Positions 40,162-59,606 of a stretch of 62,459 nucleotides of DNA are shown here, piece by piece. Every line of letters begins with the position of its first letter. Positions within the stretch are counted from its first letter, which is position 1. Below the pieces are notes generated by a model, which saw only the letters and a program-made list of their open reading frames with translations, searched no databases and was not told the origin of the DNA. This stretch comes from a virus: positions 1 through 62,459 of the IMG/VR virus record IMGVR_UViG_3300042549_003483; one strand, 5' to 3'. Made by a program: the position numbers and the translations under genes.

Positions 40162-41001
40162 CTACAGTTTAAGGATGGAACGTATCTGTTCCGGGTTGTA
40201 GTACTTCAAATCGTCTGGAATGCGCACAACTTCAGTGTCAACAATATACCTTAGCTTGGCTGCTATGTCAAGTGCCTTACGTATGGCATCAGGGTCCAGT
40301 GCAACTAACACCTTTGAGAACTGCCTTAGTGGTGTGAGCATAGCATCAGCTAGGTTCGTACCCATCAGGGCCACACCAGCAACACCGGCAGCAGACACGG
40401 CACATGCACTGGCTGCGTCTTCTACGAGGACAGCAGTATCCGAAGCAGGTTGAAGATTACGATTAGTAGCTTTAAGAGTACTAGCAAGATCGCTATACTC
40501 AAACTTGCTATTAGTATAAACGATAAAAGGAAAACTGCTTCGGTCATATCTCCACCATTTAGGTTTGTCGTCTTTATTCAGTGCCCTACCTACGGCACCA
40601 ACGATATCAGCACCATTACGATTGACGAAGACACAGCGATGCAGTTTAGGATCATAGCGAATATCAGCAGTGCGCCTAGAATACGCAGCAAGGCAGTTGT
40701 TCCTTTTGAGATAGGAGACAGCAGCCTCATTGCTTAGCACGTTAACGAAGTGATCTGGTAGTGTGAAGATGGTAGCCGTATGTTCAGATTTCCTACGTAA
40801 TCGTAGATCGTCAATGGATCGTCCGACAGAGGCTTTTCCCTTCGTACCACAGGAGGCACGATAGCAATGCCAGAGGAGTAATCCATCGATCTTTGAAACG
40901 GAAAACGTATTGGGGCCACCACAGAAAGGACAGTTGGTACGGGCATGGTTGTTGTTATTTAGTTTTATGGATTGAACTATATCAAGTGGTTTCAGTGCCA
41001 T
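40162..41001 (-). CDS. DNA primase
   Basis: 279 residues. N-terminal zinc ribbon: RTNCPFCGGPNTFSV with two Cys, and LLWHCYRASCGTKGK with two more ligands. The TOPRIM core follows: AVLVEDAASACAVSA (with the conserved Glu), ALMGTNLA and VLVALDPDAIRKAL (DxD-type). It makes RNA primers for the lagging strand. It resembles the primase half of T7 gp4 without a helicase. It ends with TAG, then 8 bases to the next gene. Own promoter upstream. Confidence 0.9.
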   Translation of the reverse strand: MALKPLDIVQSIKLNNNNHARTNCPFCGGPNTFSVSKIDGLLLWHCYRASCGTKGKASVGRSIDDLRLRRKSEHTATIFTLPDHFVNVLSNEAAVSYLKRNNCLAAYSRRTADIRYDPKLHRCVFVNRNGADIVGAVGRALNKDDKPKWWRYDRSSFPFIVYTNSKFEYSDLASTLKATNRNLQPASDTAVLVEDAASACAVSAAGVAGVALMGTNLADAMLTPLRQFSKVLVALDPDAIRKALDIAAKLRYIVDTEVVRIPDDLKYYNPEQIRSILKL

Positions 41002-41057
41002 GGGCTTTGAGTGGCTGTGGGTATATGTGACCCCCGTGAATGAACTAAGGTTAATTC

Positions 41058-41086
41058 TATATGGGTATGCGTAGGAGGTTTGTCAA
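41058..41086 (-). promoter_or_regulatory. Leftward promoter for primase
   Basis: Minus-strand TTGACA (41086-41081), 17 bases, CATATA (41063-41058). Its sequence, including GCATACCCATATAG, recurs at 55742-55770. Confidence 0.75.
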
Positions 41087-41126
41087 GGGGTAAGACTAAA
41101 ATAATTTTTATCGTTGAGGTCGTACA

Positions 41127-41246
41127 TCACTTCCTCTCCTTCCCGGTCAGCCACTCCACCTTAGCCTCCAGTTCCGCGACGCGGGCGGCGAGGGCCGCCG
41201 GCCGCCGCGACGGTTCGCCTGCCGATACCGCTTGGCCATGGCGCAC
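41127..41246 (-). CDS. Small helical ORF in high-GC island
   Basis: 39 codons from GTG 41246, directly after TAAAGGAGA. The end, AALAARVAELEAKVEWLTG, forms a heptad-type helix. A competing frame from ATG 41238 (MAKRYRQANRRGG) has better spacing from the same Shine-Dalgarno but a less protein-like end. One of them is probably real. Confidence 0.35.
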   Translation of the reverse strand: MRHGQAVSAGEPSRRPAALAARVAELEAKVEWLTGKERK

Positions 41247-41499
41247 TCTCCTTTAGCGCGGTGGCCACGATGGGGCCGAGGTTGAAAGCGCGGGCGTCCA
41301 GCCGGCTGCCGAGCCGCAGAAACCCTACGCTGAACTCCGGGACTATGCCCGTCTGCGGCTGCAATTCTCCGAAGCGATCAACGCACGTTTCGCAGCGGTG
41401 AATTTCGCGATCGGGGGCCTGCGGGAAGCCGCTATAGACCATCTGCCACATCGCGCGCGGGGACGCTTTGAAGAAGCGGCCACAACAGTCGCACTTCAT
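41161..41499 (-). CDS. Zinc-finger-like hypothetical protein in island
   Basis: 112 residues from ATG 41499, overlapping the previous stop (ATGA) with GGAGGGGG upstream. MKCDCCGRFF and IHRCETCVDRFGE are two Cys pairs able to bind zinc. The Arg/Pro/Gly-rich end (GGPRRPRRGTGG) may be read-through past a shifted original stop. No known family. Confidence 0.55.
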   Translation of the reverse strand: MKCDCCGRFFKASPRAMWQMVYSGFPQAPDREIHRCETCVDRFGELQPQTGIVPEFSVGFLRLGSRLDARAFNLGPIVATALKESAPWPSGIGRRTVAAAGGPRRPRRGTGG

Positions 41500-41837
41500 C
41501 ACGCCCCCTCCCGGTCCAGCCGGCCGGCGGCGATGCCCTCGTGCAACGTAAAGTGCGCCAGCAGGTCTTGAGCGTCGTCCATTGGATTGCTCGCCCGCAC
41601 CATCTCTATCGTGGGCTCCACCGGCACCACCGCCGCCTCCCCCTTGATCATCGCCTCCGCCGCCGCGTCGCCGACCCGGTTGAGGAGCGCGAGGGCGCGG
41701 GCGATGTGGGGGTCTTTCAGAACGGTGCGGACCGAGATGCGGTCTATCTCCCGCCAGTCCGAGTGCGAATGCGTGTTGTCGTGGTGCGCCTCGCGTATCG
41801 CGACCGCGCACCGCTCGATCAGGTCATTTCTGTTCAT
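41499..41837 (-). CDS. Hypothetical protein in high-GC island
   Basis: 112 residues, soluble and helical. It starts MNRNDLIERCAVAIREAHHD, a style common in prophage proteins of high-GC proteobacteria. It overlaps neighbours by 1-4 bases, so it is part of one translation unit. Function unknown. Confidence 0.6.
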   Translation of the reverse strand: MNRNDLIERCAVAIREAHHDNTHSHSDWREIDRISVRTVLKDPHIARALALLNRVGDAAAEAMIKGEAAVVPVEPTIEMVRASNPMDDAQDLLAHFTLHEGIAAGRLDREGA

Positions 41838-42145
41838 CGGACCTTCTCCGGGGCACGAAGCGGAACGTGTCGCGTTGCCTCTCCGAGGATGTGCCGCACG
41901 CGGTCAAATGGCACGGAACCCCATCCTGTGTGCGCGCTAGCCCCGTTGGTGTTCGGGCGTATCCACTCCCCGCGGTTGGCAGGCCCCGACTCCGGCCGGG
42001 TCTCAAAGACCATCAGCGACGCGCCCCGCGCGGGCGTCGCGTGGTTCGCCCATACGTGTGCGGCGCGGCCTCGGCCTCCTATGGCGCGGATTTCTGCGGC
42101 GGCGACGTTCAAATCGTGCTCAAAATCCGCGAAGACGTTTCGCAT
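41834..42145 (-). CDS. Hypothetical protein in high-GC island
   Basis: 103 residues from ATG 42145, inside an ATGA junction with GAGGGG upstream. MRNVFADFEHDLNVAAAEIR starts a helical part; the rest is polar. No domain recognised. Confidence 0.55.
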   Translation of the reverse strand: MRNVFADFEHDLNVAAAEIRAIGGRGRAAHVWANHATPARGASLMVFETRPESGPANRGEWIRPNTNGASAHTGWGSVPFDRVRHILGEATRHVPLRAPEKVR

Positions 42146-42741
42146 CACCCCTCCTCCCCTGTCTTCACGCCGGCCAGGACGGCGGCGAGGTCGATGGCGT
42201 CCATTCTGTGATGGTTCCGGGCGTCGCCATACGTCCCGATGACCGCCTGCTTGCAGGCATCCCGCACCGCCTCGGCAACGCGATGGGCGAGGGCGGCGCG
42301 GTCGGCAACCATTCGCTGGATCGCCTCTTCCGGGTACACGGTGCCGCCGTCGGGCGGGTCCAAGAGGAAGCGGTCGGGGATCGCCCTGCACACCGCGTCA
42401 TGATCCCGCGTCAGCCGCTCGTTCTCGGCCCGAAGGCGGGCGATCTCGTCGGCGGCTTCCGGGGTCAGGTTGCGGAGGAGGAGGAGGTCGTGCATTCCAG
42501 TCGGGCTATTTTCCGGCCACAACCTCACGCGATCATATGCCCCCCGCAACCGCTCCACGATGTCCGCTTTCCCGTCCGGGACATCCGCCCCCGCCGGGGC
42601 GCCATCGGACGCGGGAGTTTCCCGCTCGGGATGCCGCACGCATCCGGGGCGGCCGGTGCAGGATGGGTCGCGCCACTCGCCCGGCCCGCCGGGATCGACG
42701 ACGCGGATTACGCACGCCGGGCAATTCAGATTGCCGCTCAT
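42145..42741 (-). CDS. Ead/Ea22-type hypothetical protein in high-GC island
   Basis: 198 residues. A Cys-containing start (LNCPACVIRVVDPGG) and Pro/Gly linker precede KADIVERLRGAYDRVRLW and EAADEIARLRAENERLTRD, a coiled coil. The DIVERLR...AADEI.RLRAEN pattern is common in accessory proteins of alphaproteobacterial and enterobacterial phages, of unknown function. ATG overlaps the stop of a 20-codon leader ORF. Confidence 0.65.
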   Translation of the reverse strand: MSGNLNCPACVIRVVDPGGPGEWRDPSCTGRPGCVRHPERETPASDGAPAGADVPDGKADIVERLRGAYDRVRLWPENSPTGMHDLLLLRNLTPEAADEIARLRAENERLTRDHDAVCRAIPDRFLLDPPDGGTVYPEEAIQRMVADRAALAHRVAEAVRDACKQAVIGTYGDARNHHRMDAIDLAAVLAGVKTGEEG

Positions 42742-42800
42742 CGCGGGCCTCTGTAGTTATCAATCTCTACAACATGTTCAAACTTGAGTATATCAACCAT
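42738..42800 (-). CDS. 20-codon leader ORF or truncated gene
   Basis: ATG 42800 follows GGAGATT. Encodes MVDILKFEHVVEIDNY and four more residues, then TGA overlapping the next ATG. The first 17 codons are backbone type and the end is high GC, so this is probably the head of a backbone gene cut by the island; it may now couple island translation. Confidence 0.4.
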   Translation of the reverse strand: MVDILKFEHVVEIDNYRGPR

Positions 42801-42904
42801 GTTCAATCTCCATACCTATGATAGTATTAGACCTCTACCGTCCATTTGCGAGTGACGGTACCCGTTGGCCATGTACGGTGGGCAAAATACAAAACACACT
42901 CCAT

Positions 42905-42933
42905 AAAAAAGTGGCGGGGCCTTACGCCCCGCC
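42905..42933 (-). terminator. Leftward intrinsic terminator after peptidase gene
   Basis: Minus-strand GGCGGGGC (42933-42926) pairs with GCCCCGCC (42920-42913), then AC and six T. Confidence 0.92.
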
Positions 42934-42943
42934 TTGGTTGAAA

Positions 42944-44581
42944 TTACTTCTGGCCGATGCGATCACGGAAGGCAGACAGTTCGTCTTCTAGATTGTTGTT
43001 CTCTTCGATGATGTATCGGTTCTCTTGCAGCAGTTCCATAAGCGTCACTGCCATTTCGTCATACGTCACACACTCACGAACAAGGAAGGCAGTGATGATA
43101 CGCTTCATGGCGACATTGGACACGCCGTCGATAAGCCCGTCTGCGGGCTCCCACTTGGGAACCTTGTTGAGCGGTGTATCGGCAGTAACCTCGTCAAGTG
43201 GAACAACGTTAGTGTCTCGATTAGCGATAGCAGTACGAGTGGTGACGTGGGTGTTAGTCCCAGTCGCCGTACCCGAAAGCTGCACTACGTTCGTACTTCC
43301 GGTTGAGGTAGGTGACGAGGTAGTGCCAGCTACGTTTGTAGGGCGCGAGCCGGTTTTATCCTCCGGGTACATGCCCTTCCACTTGTCCTGCGGGTAGCGA
43401 GAGATGTCATCCTTGAACTCCTTTTCATACCAGTTATCGAAGTCGTGACCATGCACACCCACGCCCCGGTATGTGCCATAGCCGCCATGAAAGGAGTACG
43501 AAGTATCGTTGACATCACGGACAGTGGGTAGCGTAGACCAGTTGACTGACAACAGCGCCGGAATGAAGATTGCCTCTAGCCAGATCAAATCGAAATTTTC
43601 ATTGGTCGTGTGCTCGCTATTGTAACCGCACGAGACATTAGTGCATTCTGGGATCAGGCCAGTATATTCGGCGGTGTCTGTGTAAACACCATGCGATGAT
43701 GGTGCAAACTTAGGTGCCATGTTAGGCGTGTGTGCATTAATCTGATCAGCAAGAGCACTAGCAAACTCATTAGATGCGCACTTACCACCAGACTGATGTG
43801 TAATGATGTCCGTATGTCCGCGACGATCAAAGGCAATCGCACGCTTGATGCCCTTAACCACTTCAGGGCTGCGAGTAGAGATATGCCGAGAGCCGACACC
43901 ACCAGACTCCTCGCCAACGTGGAAGATGTACAGACCCCCCACATTTTCCTTGATCAGCCGGCACATGATGTAGCAGCCAACCTTATCGTCAGCGCCAAGC
44001 CCAGATGGGTTGTAGATTGGCTCACCTACAACCTTGGTCAGAAGCACACCATCACGCTTGACCATCTTGCCATTCTCAATGACGAAGAAGTCAAACTGCT
44101 CGTTGCCCTTGGCGCTGGTACCGTTACGCTTTAGGCTGAAATGCTCGCTGTCTGCAATTTCCTTGGCAAAATCCTTGAGGTCCGTAACCTTGATCTTACG
44201 ATTGGTGTGGACTTCGTGGAAGTACACGTTTGAGTTCTTAGTCGAGCCGTAGATATAGCCCTCGCGCTGCGAATCGCCTGTCGTAATAACAGGGGTGATA
44301 CGACCGGATGCCGCAGACACGGTGTCCATATGTGATGAGAACATCGTCTCATGTGGGCCGTCGCCAACAGTGACGATCAGATTACCGACACTATCCGTAT
44401 TGTAGATGATCTTGTGCGGAAGACGGTCGAGGAAGTGAGTGATGATCTTCTCGACCTTATCCTCACTGTGGCGTGGGCTACCCTGCTGTAGAAGATCATA
44501 CAGAAGATCAGGGATATCCTTACCGCGTACCGCTTCTCGGAAGGAAAGCTGCGTACGGTGCGTAAAGCTGGCGTAAGACAT
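42944..44581 (-). CDS. MH-clan zinc metallopeptidase-like protein
   Basis: 545 residues. All ligand motifs of co-catalytic zinc peptidases (M20/M28/M42 type) are present in order: FSSHMDTVS (H-x-D), GLGADDKVGC (bridging Asp), HVGEESGGVGS (Glu-Glu), AFDRRGHTDI (Asp) and NSEHTTNENF (His). A 60-residue insert lies between the first two. After residue 370 there is a Gly/Tyr segment, a Thr/Ser/Gly linker and a C-terminal helix (YIIEENNNLEDELSAFRDRI). It probably cleaves a peptide or amide bond; target unknown. Start overlaps the stop of the 591-residue protein, so the two are coupled. Such an enzyme is rare in phages. Confidence 0.8.
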   Translation of the reverse strand: MSYASFTHRTQLSFREAVRGKDIPDLLYDLLQQGSPRHSEDKVEKIITHFLDRLPHKIIYNTDSVGNLIVTVGDGPHETMFSSHMDTVSAASGRITPVITTGDSQREGYIYGSTKNSNVYFHEVHTNRKIKVTDLKDFAKEIADSEHFSLKRNGTSAKGNEQFDFFVIENGKMVKRDGVLLTKVVGEPIYNPSGLGADDKVGCYIMCRLIKENVGGLYIFHVGEESGGVGSRHISTRSPEVVKGIKRAIAFDRRGHTDIITHQSGGKCASNEFASALADQINAHTPNMAPKFAPSSHGVYTDTAEYTGLIPECTNVSCGYNSEHTTNENFDLIWLEAIFIPALLSVNWSTLPTVRDVNDTSYSFHGGYGTYRGVGVHGHDFDNWYEKEFKDDISRYPQDKWKGMYPEDKTGSRPTNVAGTTSSPTSTGSTNVVQLSGTATGTNTHVTTRTAIANRDTNVVPLDEVTADTPLNKVPKWEPADGLIDGVSNVAMKRIITAFLVRECVTYDEMAVTLMELLQENRYIIEENNNLEDELSAFRDRIGQK

Positions 44582-46356
44582 TATGCTGCGATCCTTACTT
44601 CGGTTGCAGTGGTGACGGTGGTAAACTCAGGGATAGCAGCAGCAGTAATTACGCCATCCATGGGAGCAAGCCATTCGATCTTGGGGAAAACAATGTCGTT
44701 GCTAACTGGTACAAGCGACATAGGTTCAAACAACGTAGCCGGATCAAACTTCATAGAACGTACACTTTGTAGAGCAACACTTCTGATCCGCGCAGCGTAG
44801 CGGGACATAATACGTCCCCCTCCGTGAGTCATCCTCCTAGTGGCATCTCTGTTTGTGTTGTTAATGCGCACACCAACACGGGTCATATTGTGTTCGCTTA
44901 AGTCTGGCGAAGTATGACGAAATACTACAATGTGAGAAGCGTATGACAGGTCAGCGTACTCATTCTCTTCCATTACCGTTTCTTGAAACGATGTGCAGAT
45001 CGACTCGGCTGCACGACGGTTTGTGAAGAAGTACCCATCTGTGGACTCATAAACATCCGGCGTACGACTGGTCCAAATGGTTGAACCGTCGTTCCGAATT
45101 GCACTGACCAGACCCTCAGCCCGAGCATGCGCTTCCGAACAGAACACCCGATCATCGGTGTCGCTGTAGATTGCGTCATCCGGGTGGAATGCCCCACCAC
45201 AATGGTCGCAGGTAAGTCGTACGTAATGGCGACTGTTAATGTAGCCAGTCGTGGAATCTGTGTTGTTGTAGTTACCTTCCCGATAACGCTCGCAGTGTGT
45301 GACGTGAAACTCCTTCGTAGCCTGATCAAACTTAATATCGAAGGAGCCGGCGATGTTATCGAAGTACGGCATGGGTGCGTGCCACTCATCGCGAGTAGCG
45401 TGTTTGAGACCCGGCATCGTAAAGCTGCACCCACGAGCGAAGCTGTCGGTAAGCTGGGTCGTACCAGCCTCTTCCAGCATCTTGACCAACTTCGTAGACC
45501 ACATATCACCGCCCGGATATACACGACCGTAGCGCCAGCCCTTCCTCGTTTCATAGACGATGCAGCGGGCTACGACACGGTTGCCACGAGTGATAAACGC
45601 ACCCCGAGTGTGGGGGTGATATGCGAAGAACGAAGTTGGGCAGTGCTTGTTGGTAAGCAGCGTGTGCCAGTGTTCCACATTATGGCGGGGGTCGCCGTCC
45701 CCACGAACGAACATGCACGAGCCGGGACCGGAACCGTACATGATCAGGAAGTCTTCCGGCTTGTCTGCATAGGTGATTTCCAGCGGACGACGCATGTCTT
45801 CGATGTACTGAGACATGTTGCGCACTAGATGATCACCAATACCCAGTTCCTTGACGTTAGAGAAGCGAGACACGGCACGGGCGATAGTCATCTCCTCATA
45901 CCGCTTGAGCCGACGCCATGCACGGTTAGTAGTGGCCCATGCCTGTGCCCGACGTGGGTCAGCCAGATCGTCCTTGAGTTTTGTGAGGAAGTCGGGGAGG
46001 GCCTCGTCGTAGCAGAAGAACGGCGTGCAGAACTTGTAGATATCGTCACTTGCCGTACCCGTCATGCTGATGTTTGTGAATACACGAACCGTGTCCGGTT
46101 TGGACCCGAACATGATGGGGGCGGTGAAAGCGAAGCGAGTGTTCTGCAAATTCTCACAGGCATACCGGCGAAGCTCCAGAAAATCCTTGGAGACAAACCG
46201 GACAATGCGCGCTGCCATGGCAAGCGGCGCGCTGTTGATGTTGAAGTCATAGCCCCCGTTGGCCATGACCTCATCCGGATTCTGCCCCTGCTCCTTAATG
46301 GCAGCGCGCAGACAATTGATTTGTTCTCGTGTGCTCAGTGTGAACATGCGAGTCAT
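44581..46356 (-). CDS. Large protein of unknown function
   Basis: 591 residues, one of the largest early proteins. The only recognisable piece is a zinc-finger-like module near residues 395-425: LTCDHCGGAFHPDDAIYSD and VFCSEAHARAEG, which has C-x2-C then C and H. The rest is globular, rich in Arg, Tyr and Phe, with no membrane part. Its stop shares bases with the peptidase start, and a 44-residue gene overlaps its own start. The two large proteins may work together. Confidence 0.75.
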   Translation of the reverse strand: MTRMFTLSTREQINCLRAAIKEQGQNPDEVMANGGYDFNINSAPLAMAARIVRFVSKDFLELRRYACENLQNTRFAFTAPIMFGSKPDTVRVFTNISMTGTASDDIYKFCTPFFCYDEALPDFLTKLKDDLADPRRAQAWATTNRAWRRLKRYEEMTIARAVSRFSNVKELGIGDHLVRNMSQYIEDMRRPLEITYADKPEDFLIMYGSGPGSCMFVRGDGDPRHNVEHWHTLLTNKHCPTSFFAYHPHTRGAFITRGNRVVARCIVYETRKGWRYGRVYPGGDMWSTKLVKMLEEAGTTQLTDSFARGCSFTMPGLKHATRDEWHAPMPYFDNIAGSFDIKFDQATKEFHVTHCERYREGNYNNTDSTTGYINSRHYVRLTCDHCGGAFHPDDAIYSDTDDRVFCSEAHARAEGLVSAIRNDGSTIWTSRTPDVYESTDGYFFTNRRAAESICTSFQETVMEENEYADLSYASHIVVFRHTSPDLSEHNMTRVGVRINNTNRDATRRMTHGGGRIMSRYAARIRSVALQSVRSMKFDPATLFEPMSLVPVSNDIVFPKIEWLAPMDGVITAAAIPEFTTVTTATEVRIAA

Positions 46357-47399: not shown

Positions 47400-47428
47400 A
47401 TTATAGCCTAAAGAGGTATCTATGTCAA
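47400..47428 (-). promoter_or_regulatory. Leftward sigma-70 promoter
   Basis: Minus-strand TTGACA (47428-47423), 17 bases, TATAAT (47405-47400): both hexamers perfect. It overlaps the last codons of the glutamyl-tRNA synthetase-like gene and drives 46976 and on. Confidence 0.88.
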
Positions 47429-48321
47429 GCCGCCTTACGACTGTAGACCTTTTGGAACCAGTCGAGTTTCGCTTGATCGAAATTCGCATTAGTGTTGCGC
47501 ATGGAACCTTCGGTAAGGAACATGCGGATAGCCTTGTCCTTACCAATGATGCTGTTCTCTTTGTTATCCTCCCGTGGACCCCAGCCTAGGCGCAGCATGA
47601 AGTTTAGAAGGGCATCAGGAGAGTAACCGCGATCACGATAATCAAGGAGAGAAGCAGCACCATCACGCTTACTCATCTTCTTCTTGTCTTTGAAGATCAG
47701 ACCGACATGGGCGAACTTAGGTGGTGGCGCACCATGTAGTTGATCACGGTCATCACACTTCTGAATAGCTGACCAGATAGCTAGCTGCTTGGCCGTGTTA
47801 GTAATGTGGTCGGTGCCACGAATAATAAAATTAACACTCATCAAGTAGTCATCAATAACACTGGCGAACTGGTACGTCGGCTCACCTAGTTTGTCACCGC
47901 CGCGTAGCAGTACGGTACGCCCGTTAATCTGCTCGATATTGGTGTCGGTAATAGGGATTCTATCGGCAACTTCATCACGCCATGAGCGAGGCATGAAGTC
48001 CTGCCAGTTGAGGATGATTGCGCCATTGTCGGCACGGAACGCAAAGCCATGTTCCAGAAGACGCTCGGCTTCCGCCTTGTAGATGGACGTGCGCTGAGAC
48101 TGGCGCTCAAAGCGATCCCAATCCAGCCCAAGCCACTTCAGCCCATCATAGATAGGTTGGATGGCCTCAGGCTTATTACGCTCAGTGTCCGTGTCATCCA
48201 AACGAAGGATGAACTGGCCACCTGTAGCCTTGGCAGCAAGCCAGCAGAAGTATGCTGTGCGTGCCGTGCCGAAGTGCATCATCCCGGTAGGGGACGGGGC
48301 GATGCGAGTAACATATTCCAT
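47425..48321 (-). CDS. Truncated glutamyl-tRNA synthetase-like protein
   Basis: 298 residues from ATG 48321, after GGAGTGCTCAC. Class I synthetase signatures: TRIAPSPTGMMHFGTARTAY (HIGH region), ILRLDDTDTERNKPEAIQ, GLKWLGLDWD, and KDKKKMSKRDGAASLLDYRD (KMSKS loop). Full GluRS is about 470 residues; this ends soon after the catalytic and stem-contact parts and has no anticodon-binding domain. GluQ-RS (YadB) has a similar length, but that enzyme has a weaker KMSKS and a zinc site which I do not see here. It could charge a non-standard acceptor or modify tRNA. Confidence 0.88.
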   Translation of the reverse strand: MEYVTRIAPSPTGMMHFGTARTAYFCWLAAKATGGQFILRLDDTDTERNKPEAIQPIYDGLKWLGLDWDRFERQSQRTSIYKAEAERLLEHGFAFRADNGAIILNWQDFMPRSWRDEVADRIPITDTNIEQINGRTVLLRGGDKLGEPTYQFASVIDDYLMSVNFIIRGTDHITNTAKQLAIWSAIQKCDDRDQLHGAPPPKFAHVGLIFKDKKKMSKRDGAASLLDYRDRGYSPDALLNFMLRLGWGPREDNKENSIIGKDKAIRMFLTEGSMRNTNANFDQAKLDWFQKVYSRKAA

Positions 48322-48331
48322 GTGAGCACTC

Positions 48332-48688
48332 CTATGCTGCACGAAGGTTCTTATGAAGATACTTAACTGCTAGGTCTGACCTAGACATAGCTAGCTTTCT
48401 AAGCGAATTTCGTCTTACAATAACAAGGTATGGACCGGCTGTGGTAATGCCACTACCATGGGTTAGGTACGCGTCCATACCATTTGAAAAAACTTTATCT
48501 AGTGTAAAGGCTTGAAAGCTATAGTCGTCGAACAAGACTCTACCTGTGACGAACATAGTTCTGTCCGACCAGCGATCAATAATGCTGTAACTAGCCTCTA
48601 GGGCTGATCGCACATGGGTATGGGAAAAGACTTCCGCCCCTGCTACGTCGTATGGTAAGCCCATCGTCTCAGTAATGGGGTAGATCAT
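48332..48688 (-). CDS. Hypothetical early protein
   Basis: 118 residues, mixed alpha/beta; ATG overlaps the stop of the zinc-finger protein (ATGA). Contains a beta segment TMFVTGRVLFDDYSFQAFTL and a basic end. Ends with TAG. No known family. Confidence 0.65.
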   Translation of the reverse strand: MIYPITETMGLPYDVAGAEVFSHTHVRSALEASYSIIDRWSDRTMFVTGRVLFDDYSFQAFTLDKVFSNGMDAYLTHGSGITTAGPYLVIVRRNSLRKLAMSRSDLAVKYLHKNLRAA

Positions 48689-48942: not shown

Positions 48943-49359
48943 TCAGAAAGCTGCAGCAAAGCTGCCATCGGCTACGTTCCACACCTCGGGCTTGTCATCC
49001 GTGGTGTAGAATACGCGCCGAACACCCGCTTGACGAATGATCGCTTGGCAAACAGTGCAGGGTTTGGCAAGGGCTACAGAACCGTCGCGCTTGACCCGTG
49101 ATACAGCCAGATCAACGCCATGGCTGGCATCGAATCCGGCATGTAGAATGCAGCTAGACTCAGCGTGTAGAAACGGCCACGGACTGTATCTAGCCAGCTT
49201 TGGATGAGTTTTGAGTTCATTATGTTTTGCCGATATTACATGGTTGCCAGAGAAAAGAACGGCACCAACCCGGAAGTTAGTGCCGTTGCGACCGCCTACG
49301 CCGGGACCAGATAAAGCTACCGCTTTAGCTGCTTCCAGCATTCGCCCGATTCGGGCCAT
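48943..49359 (-). CDS. Cytidine/deoxycytidylate deaminase-like
   Basis: 138 residues. The zinc motif is LHAESSCILHA (H-A-E) and AKPCTVCQAIIRQAGVRRV (P-C-x2-C), standard for the CDA fold. It would deaminate cytidine or dCMP, feeding dUMP to ThyX. An ATG at 49341 (MLEAAKAVALSG) is an alternative start. The 5' end overlaps the previous gene by 35 bases. Confidence 0.87.
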   Translation of the reverse strand: MARIGRMLEAAKAVALSGPGVGGRNGTNFRVGAVLFSGNHVISAKHNELKTHPKLARYSPWPFLHAESSCILHAGFDASHGVDLAVSRVKRDGSVALAKPCTVCQAIIRQAGVRRVFYTTDDKPEVWNVADGSFAAAF

Positions 49360-49561
49360 CGCGCAACTCGCGCAGCATCCTGTTTACTGGCTTTTCTCCA
49401 TATCGGTGTACAAGATATTCATACTTGTGCCACGGCATGTTTGCCATGCGCCGTGCTTCTGCACGAAGATTACGAGTTGTTTGGTCGAGGCGAGGCTCTT
49501 GCGTGATAGTTGGTGGCACGAACGACGGATCGCAGAGTTGGCCTTTGAAGGATAGACTCAT
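49325..49561 (-). CDS. Small hypothetical protein
   Basis: 78 residues, helical and basic (TRNLRAEARRMANMPWHKYE). ATG overlaps the stop of the 27-residue membrane peptide gene (ATGA). Unknown. Confidence 0.6.
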   Translation of the reverse strand: MSLSFKGQLCDPSFVPPTITQEPRLDQTTRNLRAEARRMANMPWHKYEYLVHRYGEKPVNRMLRELRDGPNRANAGSS

Positions 49562-49641
49562 TTGTGTAAACCTTTCTCAATTTTGTAAGCGTGGTAACAA
49601 ACCATGACGATGTAGGCGAATACAGCTAGGCTAATAATCAA
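49558..49641 (-). CDS. 27-residue membrane peptide
   Basis: From TTG 49641, overlapping the RNA ligase stop (TTGA), to TGA 49558, overlapping the next ATG. LIISLAVFAYIVMVCYHAYK is a membrane helix followed by a basic end. Exact overlap at both ends supports it. Confidence 0.6.
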   Translation of the reverse strand: MIISLAVFAYIVMVCYHAYKIEKGLHK

Positions 49642-50567
49642 GGGGTGATTTCCCCATTCTCAAGCCAATGCTTGTACGTCTCGGGAAAATTCTTGATTGC
49701 CATCCGCATAAGGTCTTTGTGAAACAGGCGGTAAAGCATGTTCTTGATATTTGTCTCCTCCTCCTCAGAGATATCAGTGACGATACTCTTCATAAGAGGG
49801 CCGATATCACGAACAGTGCCAGTCAGTGTGCCGTCCTCACGAGCACGCTGGATTGCCTTACGCCAGCGAGCCTGACTGTTGTAAGCAGCACCGATCTGCT
49901 CTAGGGCAGAAGGATTGGACTGCTTCCAACCGTCAACGTGCTTCTCCTTGAACTCAGCGCTGACCAGCTTAGCGAAGGTGCCGAGGTAGTCCTTGCCGTT
50001 GAAGTGGCAGGGACGGCTATAGTTTTTGACGACCACACCTTCCATGGTCGCTTTGCCTAGTGCTGACTCCTTACCCATGAAGGAGTGAAGCCACTCACGC
50101 CCCTCAACTACATCAGGGGCAGGGCCTTGGTAAAGCACAGGCACAGGCTCGCAGCCTAGACGCTCAGCCCATTCTGTACGATCAGCCGCATGGCTTTCGG
50201 GAGTTGTGTAGACAGGGCGCTCAGTAAGGTAGGTAATCCCAAATAGCATGAAGTGTCCTTTGGGGACACGTGCGTAGTCCAGCGTATTGTGCTTGGGTGA
50301 TTGGAGATATTCGCCGTGAAAGATGGCGTTGCTTGGCAGCTTGTCTTCGATGCTCTTCACATACTCCTTGGCAGCGTTGAACATCTTATTGGAGTCACCG
50401 TGGAATACATTAGCGTTCTTGGAACGCATGTATACAATGCCATCCAGCTTGCCGAAGTTGAACTGGCTGCCGTCGATCTTCTCCGTTACTTCAACAACGG
50501 CATCTTTAAGCATTCCGTGAGTAGGATGATCACCCCACGAGAATAGCTTTTGAAAACCTTGGATCAT
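49638..50567 (-). CDS. Rnl2-like RNA ligase
   Basis: 309 residues from ATG 50567 (ATG 50573 also open). Nucleotidyltransferase motifs: VEVTEKIDGSQFNFGK (motif I, adenylated Lys in K-x-D-G), IFHGEYLQSP (III), EGVVVKNYSRP (IV) and GTFAKLVSAEF (V). A helical C-terminus follows. It would seal broken RNA, for example tRNA cut by host defence nucleases. A polynucleotide kinase-like gene lies 3 kb upstream in the same arm. Confidence 0.9.
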   Translation of the reverse strand: MIQGFQKLFSWGDHPTHGMLKDAVVEVTEKIDGSQFNFGKLDGIVYMRSKNANVFHGDSNKMFNAAKEYVKSIEDKLPSNAIFHGEYLQSPKHNTLDYARVPKGHFMLFGITYLTERPVYTTPESHAADRTEWAERLGCEPVPVLYQGPAPDVVEGREWLHSFMGKESALGKATMEGVVVKNYSRPCHFNGKDYLGTFAKLVSAEFKEKHVDGWKQSNPSALEQIGAAYNSQARWRKAIQRAREDGTLTGTVRDIGPLMKSIVTDISEEEETNIKNMLYRLFHKDLMRMAIKNFPETYKHWLENGEITP

Positions 50568-50671
50568 TGCCATAGTAAAACACCTAGAAAGGGAACAATG
50601 AACGCAATTAAAATAATCCCGACTGTGCTTGTTGCGTAATCAGGATGTGTCGATCTTTTTGACTTTGGCAC
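50564..50671 (-). CDS. 35-residue membrane peptide
   Basis: From GTG 50671 to TGA 50564, overlapping the RNA ligase ATG (ATGA). A polar start (PKSKRSTHPDYATSTV) leads to a membrane helix (GIILIAFIVPFLGVLLW). It overlaps the basic 42-residue gene in another frame. Confidence 0.5.
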   Translation of the reverse strand: MPKSKRSTHPDYATSTVGIILIAFIVPFLGVLLWQ

Positions 50672-59524: not shown

Positions 59525-59606
59525 GGATGGGCTGTCACTGGCGAGACTAGCTGACTGTAAATCAGTGGCTTTGGCTGTGGTGGTTCGACTCCATCCCCAT
59601 CCACCA
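59525..59606 (+). tRNA. tRNA-Tyr (anticodon GTA)
   Basis: Acceptor GGATGGG pairs fully with CCCATCC, followed by discriminator A and an encoded CCA. Anticodon arm CTGA-CTGTAAA-TCAG, D arm with GTC/GAC, a long variable arm as tyrosine tRNAs have, and T arm GGTGG-TTCGACT-CCATC. Position 8 is C rather than the usual U. 82 nt. Confidence 0.92.

What the first reader, a model, noticed from the sequence alone, without database searches (positions are those of the whole stretch)
42944..46356. Phage zinc peptidase coupled to a 591-residue unknown protein
All five ligand motifs of the MH-clan peptidases are intact in the 545-residue protein, which also has a flexible linker and C-terminal coil. Its start shares bases with the stop of the large unknown, which has its own zinc-finger-like module. 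Two large, coupled, early proteins of about 3.4 kb cost in a phage genome suggest a real function, such as removing a peptide or acyl-amino modification from a host or phage molecule. This is my best candidate for an undescribed system.
Basis: partly seen in the sequence, partly recalled or inferred. Interest (0 to 1): 0.7.

Follow-up and report, generated by a model that had tools for sequence, protein, structure and literature searches.

The report
Conserved phage peptidase and partner pair
Two adjacent genes of this phage, a zinc peptidase and a large protein of unknown function with a predicted transferase-like fold, travel together in very different phages (about 43 kb to 735 kb genomes), so they very probably work as one undescribed unit whose target is not yet known.

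Summary
A 545-residue MH-clan zinc peptidase (42944-44581, minus) follows a 591-residue unknown (44581-46356, minus); stop and start share one base (TAATG). All five metal ligands and both catalytic acids are kept in every relative that covers them. The peptidase belongs to an annotated phage family (phrog_4191; 364 phage records). The unknown has no single-sequence database match, but an HMM built without it finds it at E 4e-52. Its family, which includes phrog_6980 and phrog_13313, lies directly upstream of the peptidase in 72 of 74 viral contigs with room to show it; the other two carry it nearby, one downstream. Thermus phage P74-26 has both genes about 29 kb apart; three huge phages carry several copies of each; six unrelated phages have neither. 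The partner's model (residues 1-460 confident) matches GNAT/FemX/LF-transferase folds in all top PDB hits, with weak scores; it lacks the usual acetyl-CoA loop signature and carries a zinc module. Best reading: a two-protein module in which a GNAT-like zinc-binding protein selects or modifies a substrate that the peptidase trims, probably in host takeover or counter-defence. Pairing is well supported; substrate and purpose are inference.

The parts
42944..44581 (-). MH-clan zinc peptidase, 545 aa: catalytic part about residues 20-360 with an insert at ~96-190, disordered linker ~365-470, helical C-terminal tail 489-544
   Evidence: phrog_4191 E 3.6e-64; profile hits to PepT/tripeptidase and M42; Foldseek to M42/TET and PepT, best E 2e-11; ligands invariant
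44581..46356 (-). Partner protein, 591 aa: helical N-terminal part, GNAT-like core about residues 190-355 with invariant S213-C214-M215, R264, P330 and D333 and nearly invariant R278/Y280, zinc module C383-C386-C406-H410, low-confidence C-terminus from ~465
   Evidence: HMM built without the window finds it at E 3.7e-52; BLAST to L034 E 2.6e-55; model mean pLDDT 76; Foldseek
44579..44583 (-). TAATG junction: partner stop TAA and peptidase start ATG share the base at 44581; consistent with translational coupling
   Evidence: sequence; 13 of 80 surveyed pairs show exactly this one-base overlap and 9 a four-base overlap
42913..42933 (-). terminator-like hairpin (8 G-C pairs, then a T run) after the peptidase

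Best explanation
The two genes form one conserved phage module. Shown by computation: the 545-residue protein has a complete MH-clan (M28/M42/M20-like) zinc peptidase active site, and the 591-residue protein belongs to an essentially viral family that co-occurs with the peptidase, adjacent in nearly all loci. Inferred: both proteins act on the same substrate. The partner, a GNAT-like-fold protein without the usual acetyl-CoA loop signature and with a zinc module, recognises an amino group on a polypeptide or amino-acid conjugate and either transfers an acyl/aminoacyl group there or simply presents it. The peptidase then removes an end residue or N-acyl group, helped by its linker and helical tail docking to the partner or target. 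The likely purpose is host takeover or counter-defence before or during phage DNA replication, because the genes sit just before the primase-helicase-polymerase block here and in Autographiviridae.
For: Pairing: partner directly upstream in 72 of 74 viral contigs with room; in the other two it is one ORF further upstream (L058) or directly downstream (L085/L131). 73 of 80 pairs lie within 50 bp and 36 overlap. The order is swapped in L131, in huge phage LR756502 (L133) and in a spirochaete-MAG contig (L104). Both genes are present but unlinked in Thermus phage P74-26. Six unrelated phages (T7, T4, phiKZ, N4, HMO-2011, phiKMV) have neither; VP93 has both. Catalysis: ligands invariant; fold and profile matches to PepT/M42. 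Partner fold: the top 50 PDB fold hits are all GNAT-superfamily, FemX or LF-transferase structures (E 3e-3 to 8e-2, probabilities up to 1.00, target-normalised TM up to 0.50). Viral rather than cellular: of 198 genomes of one phylum only one had a match, on a 3.2-kb contig carrying both genes. Position: before primase and helicase in SU552A, PP16, VP93 and the window.
Against: Partner fold E-values are weak and whole-query TM-scores low. Profile-profile comparison with GNAT and LF-transferase gave nothing, but its positive control (LF-transferase against GNAT) also failed, so it is uninformative. The acetyl-CoA loop signature is absent (0 of 48 in the aligned segment; 2 of 37 in a wider set match the pattern as RAYGDA/RIYGDA), so transferase activity may be absent; the same simple pattern also missed the GNAT-like phiKMV gp13, so it is a crude test. 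No direct evidence of a physical complex, a substrate or expression time. The distance correlation (Spearman 0.805, 52 pairs, null maximum 0.317) is also expected from gene linkage alone. More distant peptidases in a Lactococcus and a Bacillus phage have no convincing partner.
Confidence: 0.5

Rival explanations
1. The partner is not an enzyme but a zinc-binding adaptor or scaffold that delivers particular host proteins to the peptidase; the GNAT-like fold is degenerate.
For: No acetyl-CoA loop signature in A3; long variable N- and C-terminal parts and a zinc module that becomes repeated CxxCxGxG-like motifs in huge-phage versions; only a few columns are invariant.
Against: The invariant S-C-M, R, R-x-Y and P-Y-x-D set across very divergent proteins looks like a working site rather than a mere surface.
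Confidence: 0.25
2. Writer and eraser: the partner transfers an amino acid or acyl group to an amino group (like FemX or leucyl/phenylalanyl-tRNA-protein transferase) and the peptidase removes such groups, so that the phage remodels N-termini or an amino-acylated metabolite.
For: FemX and LF-transferase structures are among the fold hits; MH-clan enzymes include aminopeptidases and N-acyl amino acid deacylases (general knowledge; NCBIfam sub-threshold hits to LysW-lysine hydrolase and acetylornithine deacetylase); a GluRS-like protein lies 1 kb away in the window.
Against: Only 5 of 46 searched records carry a Glu/Gln-type aminoacyl-tRNA synthetase, so the link to it is not general; fold evidence cannot tell transfer from binding.
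Confidence: 0.2
3. [quoted passage not shown] here phage-encoded GNAT-like protein and peptidase would do both steps.
For: The jumbo-phage review links phage GNATs and peptidases in host takeover (PMC7824862); Rac is an acetyltransferase-dependent trigger of alpha cleavage (PMC7552054); phiKMV ORF13, a GNAT-like protein, sits just before the primase region, where the pair sits in KP34-like phages.
Against: Rac acts with host proteases and the cut is at an internal bond, whereas MH-clan enzymes are normally exopeptidases; phiKMV has neither family and no homology was found. LUZ19 Rac is numbered Gp28 in the paper, so its equivalence to phiKMV ORF13 is not established here.
Confidence: 0.08
4. 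No shared function: the genes are neighbours because both belong to the same early or replication cassette.
For: Fixed position in related Autographiviridae genomes.
Against: Same pair in unrelated genome contexts, swapped order, unlinked co-occurrence in P74-26, multiple copies of both in huge phages.
Confidence: 0.05

Closest known systems
phrog_4191 phage peptidases (e.g. Klebsiella phage SU552A gp10, Pectobacterium phage PP16 gp11, Rhizobium phage Pasto 'zinc peptidase')
   Same: Clear homologue (E 3.6e-64); same ligands; same kind of neighbour upstream
   Different: About 200 residues longer: insert between H-x-D and the bridging Asp, linker and helical tail
phrog_6980 / phrog_13313 / phrog_23053, proteins of unknown function (KP34-like phages, Kotilavirus PP16, Thermus P74-26)
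   Same: Same family by iterated HMM or profile search; shared SCM, R, R-x-Y, PYxD and (mostly) the zinc cysteines
   Different: Only about 13-26% identity to the window protein in A3-type alignments; not detected by single-sequence search against the annotated phage collection
M42/TET aminopeptidases and M20 peptidase T
   Same: Fold and active-site layout
   Different: Scores below the Pfam and NCBIfam cut-offs; short members of the phage family lack an inserted domain
GNAT superfamily, including FemX and LF-transferase
   Same: Predicted core strand-helix order; all top 50 PDB fold hits
   Different: No usual acetyl-CoA loop signature; no significant sequence or profile match; zinc module added
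phiKMV-group Rac acetyltransferase
   Same: GNAT-type phage protein acting on the host
   Different: No detectable homology; no phage peptidase partner

Membership tests
MH-clan zinc peptidase | Five metal ligands (H, bridging D, E, D, H) plus catalytic D and E | tested here: met
   H84, D86, D198, E224, E225, D252, H324; kept in all of 89 relatives that cover the site. Roles assigned from general knowledge of the clan
MH-clan zinc peptidase | Aminopeptidase-type alpha/beta fold | tested here: met
   Model with confident core; 119 PDB hits at E<=0.001; the best 50 are M42/TET and related aminopeptidases plus PepT-type peptidases, best E 2e-11
MH-clan zinc peptidase | Measured peptidase or deacylase activity | not testable with these tools
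   -
Pfam M42 / M28 / M20 (individual families) | Score above the curated cut-off | tested here: not met
   M42 17.2 of 23.2 bits; M28 13.9 of 21.3; M20 no hit for the window. Some relatives pass M28 (PP16 35.4, SU552A 22.8)
phrog_4191 | Significant profile match over the catalytic part | tested here: met
   E 3.6e-64, residues 24-358
Partner family (phrog_6980-like) | Significant match to an HMM built without the window, plus the conserved motif set | tested here: met
   E 3.7e-52; SCM, R264, R278/Y280, PYxD
GNAT superfamily | GNAT fold | tested here: inconclusive
   All top 50 PDB hits are of this superfamily but E is 3e-3 to 8e-2; profile test uninformative
GNAT superfamily (acetyl-CoA dependent) | R/Q-x-x-G-x-G/A pyrophosphate loop between beta4 and alpha3 | tested here: not met
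   0 of 48 in A3; 2 of 37 in a wider set by RxYGDA. The simple pattern also misses phiKMV gp13, so it is a crude test
FemX / LF-transferase (aminoacyl-tRNA dependent) | Sequence homology | tested here: inconclusive
   LF-transferase: hhalign non-significant, control also failed; FemX not compared by sequence
PcfJ (PF14284) | Sequence or profile homology | tested here: not met
   hhalign E 0.74-0.8 with a small PcfJ set; loose resemblance of the C...Y...strand order only
Known anti-phage defence proteins | PADLOC model match | tested here: not met
   No match for either protein or for the relatives tried

The most novel reading that the evidence does not exclude
A widespread, undescribed two-enzyme phage system: a zinc-binding GNAT-like aminoacyl- or acyltransferase of a new, essentially viral family coupled to a dedicated MH-clan peptidase, which together rewrite N-termini (or amino-acyl conjugates) of host proteins or metabolites to take over the cell or defeat a defence.
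Probability: 0.2. Interest if true: 0.85.

Novelty: new variant of a known kind. Interest (0 to 1): 0.58.

Why it matters
Hundreds of sequenced phages, many infecting Klebsiella and Pectobacterium, carry this peptidase labelled only 'peptidase', and in the phrog_4191-type genomes examined its large neighbour is an unlabelled homologue of the window's partner. Showing that the two are a conserved unit from 43-kb podophages to 735-kb huge phages turns two unknowns into one testable question, gives model systems for it (Thermus phage P74-26, Escherichia phage Minorna), and points to a predicted fold and a small set of residues to mutate.

Tried and rejected
Single-protein searches of viral contigs, phages and PDB for the partner found nothing useful; only profiles worked. 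The full partner alignment was too divergent for the pattern search. The GluRS-like neighbour as part of the system: rejected as general (5 of 46 records), although a related 63-kb contig also has it beside the pair. Carboxysome shell carbonic anhydrase hits (Pfam E 0.09, NCBIfam E 0.013) are far below cut-off, lie over the zinc region only and were rejected. PcfJ: not supported. Profile comparison with GNAT and LF-transferase: uninformative because the control failed. Defence-system membership: no match. Homology with phiKMV early proteins including its GNAT: none. A sigma-70 scan over the pair found no promoter-like site.

Full report
The observation. The window is a 62.5-kb phage record with terminase, portal, DNA polymerase, helicase, primase, ribonucleotide reductase and thymidylate synthase genes. 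On the minus strand the 591-codon gene ends TAA and the 545-codon gene begins in the same TAATG, with AAGGA a few bases before it. The next features downstream are a G-C-rich terminator-like hairpin (42933-42913) and a G+C-rich stretch at 41.0-43.0 kb.

The peptidase. It matches phrog_4191 'peptidase' at 3.6e-64 over residues 24-358 and by tblastn 364 phage records at E<=1e-5, mainly Klebsiella, Pectobacterium and Vibrio phages. A 43-sequence alignment (A4) gives hits to tripeptidase/peptidase T and M42 aminopeptidases in PDB, and the AlphaFold2 model finds M42/TET and PepT structures (best E 2e-11). It misses the Pfam M42 and M28 cut-offs, so I place it in the MH clan and in phrog_4191, not in a Pfam family. 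D198, E224, E225, D252 and H324 are kept in 89/89 relatives and H84/D86 in 88, the remaining one being a truncated ORF. Compared with the short relatives, the window protein has an insert at residues ~96-190, a disordered linker (~365-470) and a C-terminal set of helices; similar helical tails recur in relatives such as L011, L020 and L133 by eye.

The partner. Alone it looked like an orphan. In annotated phages, however, a large hypothetical protein sits directly before the peptidase: SU552A gp09/gp10 (one shared base), Minorna gp49/gp48, PP16 gp10/gp11 (overlapping), Pasto 004/005, Vibrio DE10. An HMM seeded only with five of these and iterated over fetched loci, never using the window protein, found the window protein at 1.3e-11 after one round and 3.7e-52 at the end. 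Direct BLAST links it to L034 (2.6e-55) and L011 (1.2e-29). Known members are phrog_6980 and phrog_13313, unknown function; the P74-26 homologue is phrog_23053.

The pairing. Of 80 viral contigs fetched with the peptidase, 6 end too close to the gene to tell; 72 of the other 74 have the partner directly upstream; L058 has it one ORF away; L085 has it directly downstream. Across 80 pairs, 73 gaps are within 50 bp, 36 overlap, 13 share exactly one base and 9 share four. In the huge phages the profile finds 3, 6 and 2 partner-like proteins and 4, 5 and 5 peptidases; in LR756502 and LR756501 some lie side by side, in other orders. Thermus phage P74-26 has both about 29 kb apart. Bradyrhizobium phage BDU-MI-1 has the pair followed by rIIA. 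T7, T4, phiKZ, N4, HMO-2011 and phiKMV have neither; VP93 has both. Of 198 genomes of one bacterial phylum, only one matches the partner, on a 3.2-kb contig that carries both genes in swapped order. This makes mere cassette neighbourhood unlikely. The distance correlation between the two families (Spearman 0.805, 52 pairs) agrees, but linkage alone would give it.

What the partner may be. The model is confident for most of residues 1-460. Foldseek against PDB gives GNAT-superfamily structures, FemX and LF-transferase as all of the top 50 hits, with E-values of only 3e-3 to 8e-2; against viral models the first hit is the Klebsiella phage KpV48 homologue (6e-10), with several NAT_SF proteins below. 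Across the window, autographivirus, environmental, Thermus and huge-phage versions the columns S213, C214, M215, R264, P330 and D333 are invariant and R278 and Y280 nearly so. The R/Q-x-x-G-x-G/A signature of acetyl-CoA-binding GNATs is missing in all 48 A3 members; this simple pattern also misses phiKMV gp13, so it is only a crude test. The zinc module (C383, C386, C406, H410) is kept as four ligands in most members, and in some huge-phage versions it becomes CxxCxGxG-like repeats. I therefore call it 'GNAT-like fold, probable', and do not file it as an acetyltransferase.

Function. Shown: a complete peptidase active site, a viral partner family, strong pairing. Inferred: shared substrate, and host takeover or counter-defence as purpose. 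The Rac precedent (PMC7552054) and the proposal that phage GNATs and peptidases act on host proteins (PMC7824862) make this plausible, but Rac is not detectably homologous and works with host proteases. The GluRS-like neighbour is not part of the general system.

Novelty. The peptidase is annotated and the KP34-like pair is listed as consecutive shared genes (PMC4411677); the papers found treat neither as a system. What is new here, as far as the held open-access library shows, is that the two form a conserved module far beyond Autographiviridae and that the unknown has a GNAT-like predicted fold.

Noticed in passing
window 47425-48342 (-): 305-residue glutamyl-tRNA-synthetase-like protein with catalytic domain only (HFGT and KMSKR motifs, no room for an anticodon-binding part); scores high for GluRS and GluQRS models but below both cut-offs. 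A related 63-kb contig (G005, beside L031) has a similar gene next to its pair.
   Followed up: partly
window 41001-43000: G+C-rich island (63-64% against about 50% around it) between the primase and the peptidase, with small ORFs, one with GC3 of 0.83; looks acquired.
   Followed up: no
huge phage records LR756501, LR756502, LR745206 (L127-L136): Several paralogues of both the peptidase and the partner-like protein per genome; some partner versions carry repeated CxxCxGxG motifs like the DnaJ zinc region.
   Followed up: partly
LR756501 666883-667881: A peptidase-like match interrupted by many stop codons of all three kinds (5 TGA, 2 TAG, 6 TAA); possibly a decayed copy or an alignment across a gap.
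   Followed up: no
window 59525-59606 (+): tRNA-Tyr(GTA) gene in the phage genome.
   Followed up: no
window 48943-50573 (-): RNA ligase (49638-50573) and dCMP-deaminase-like (48943-49359) genes upstream of the GluRS-like gene.
   Followed up: no
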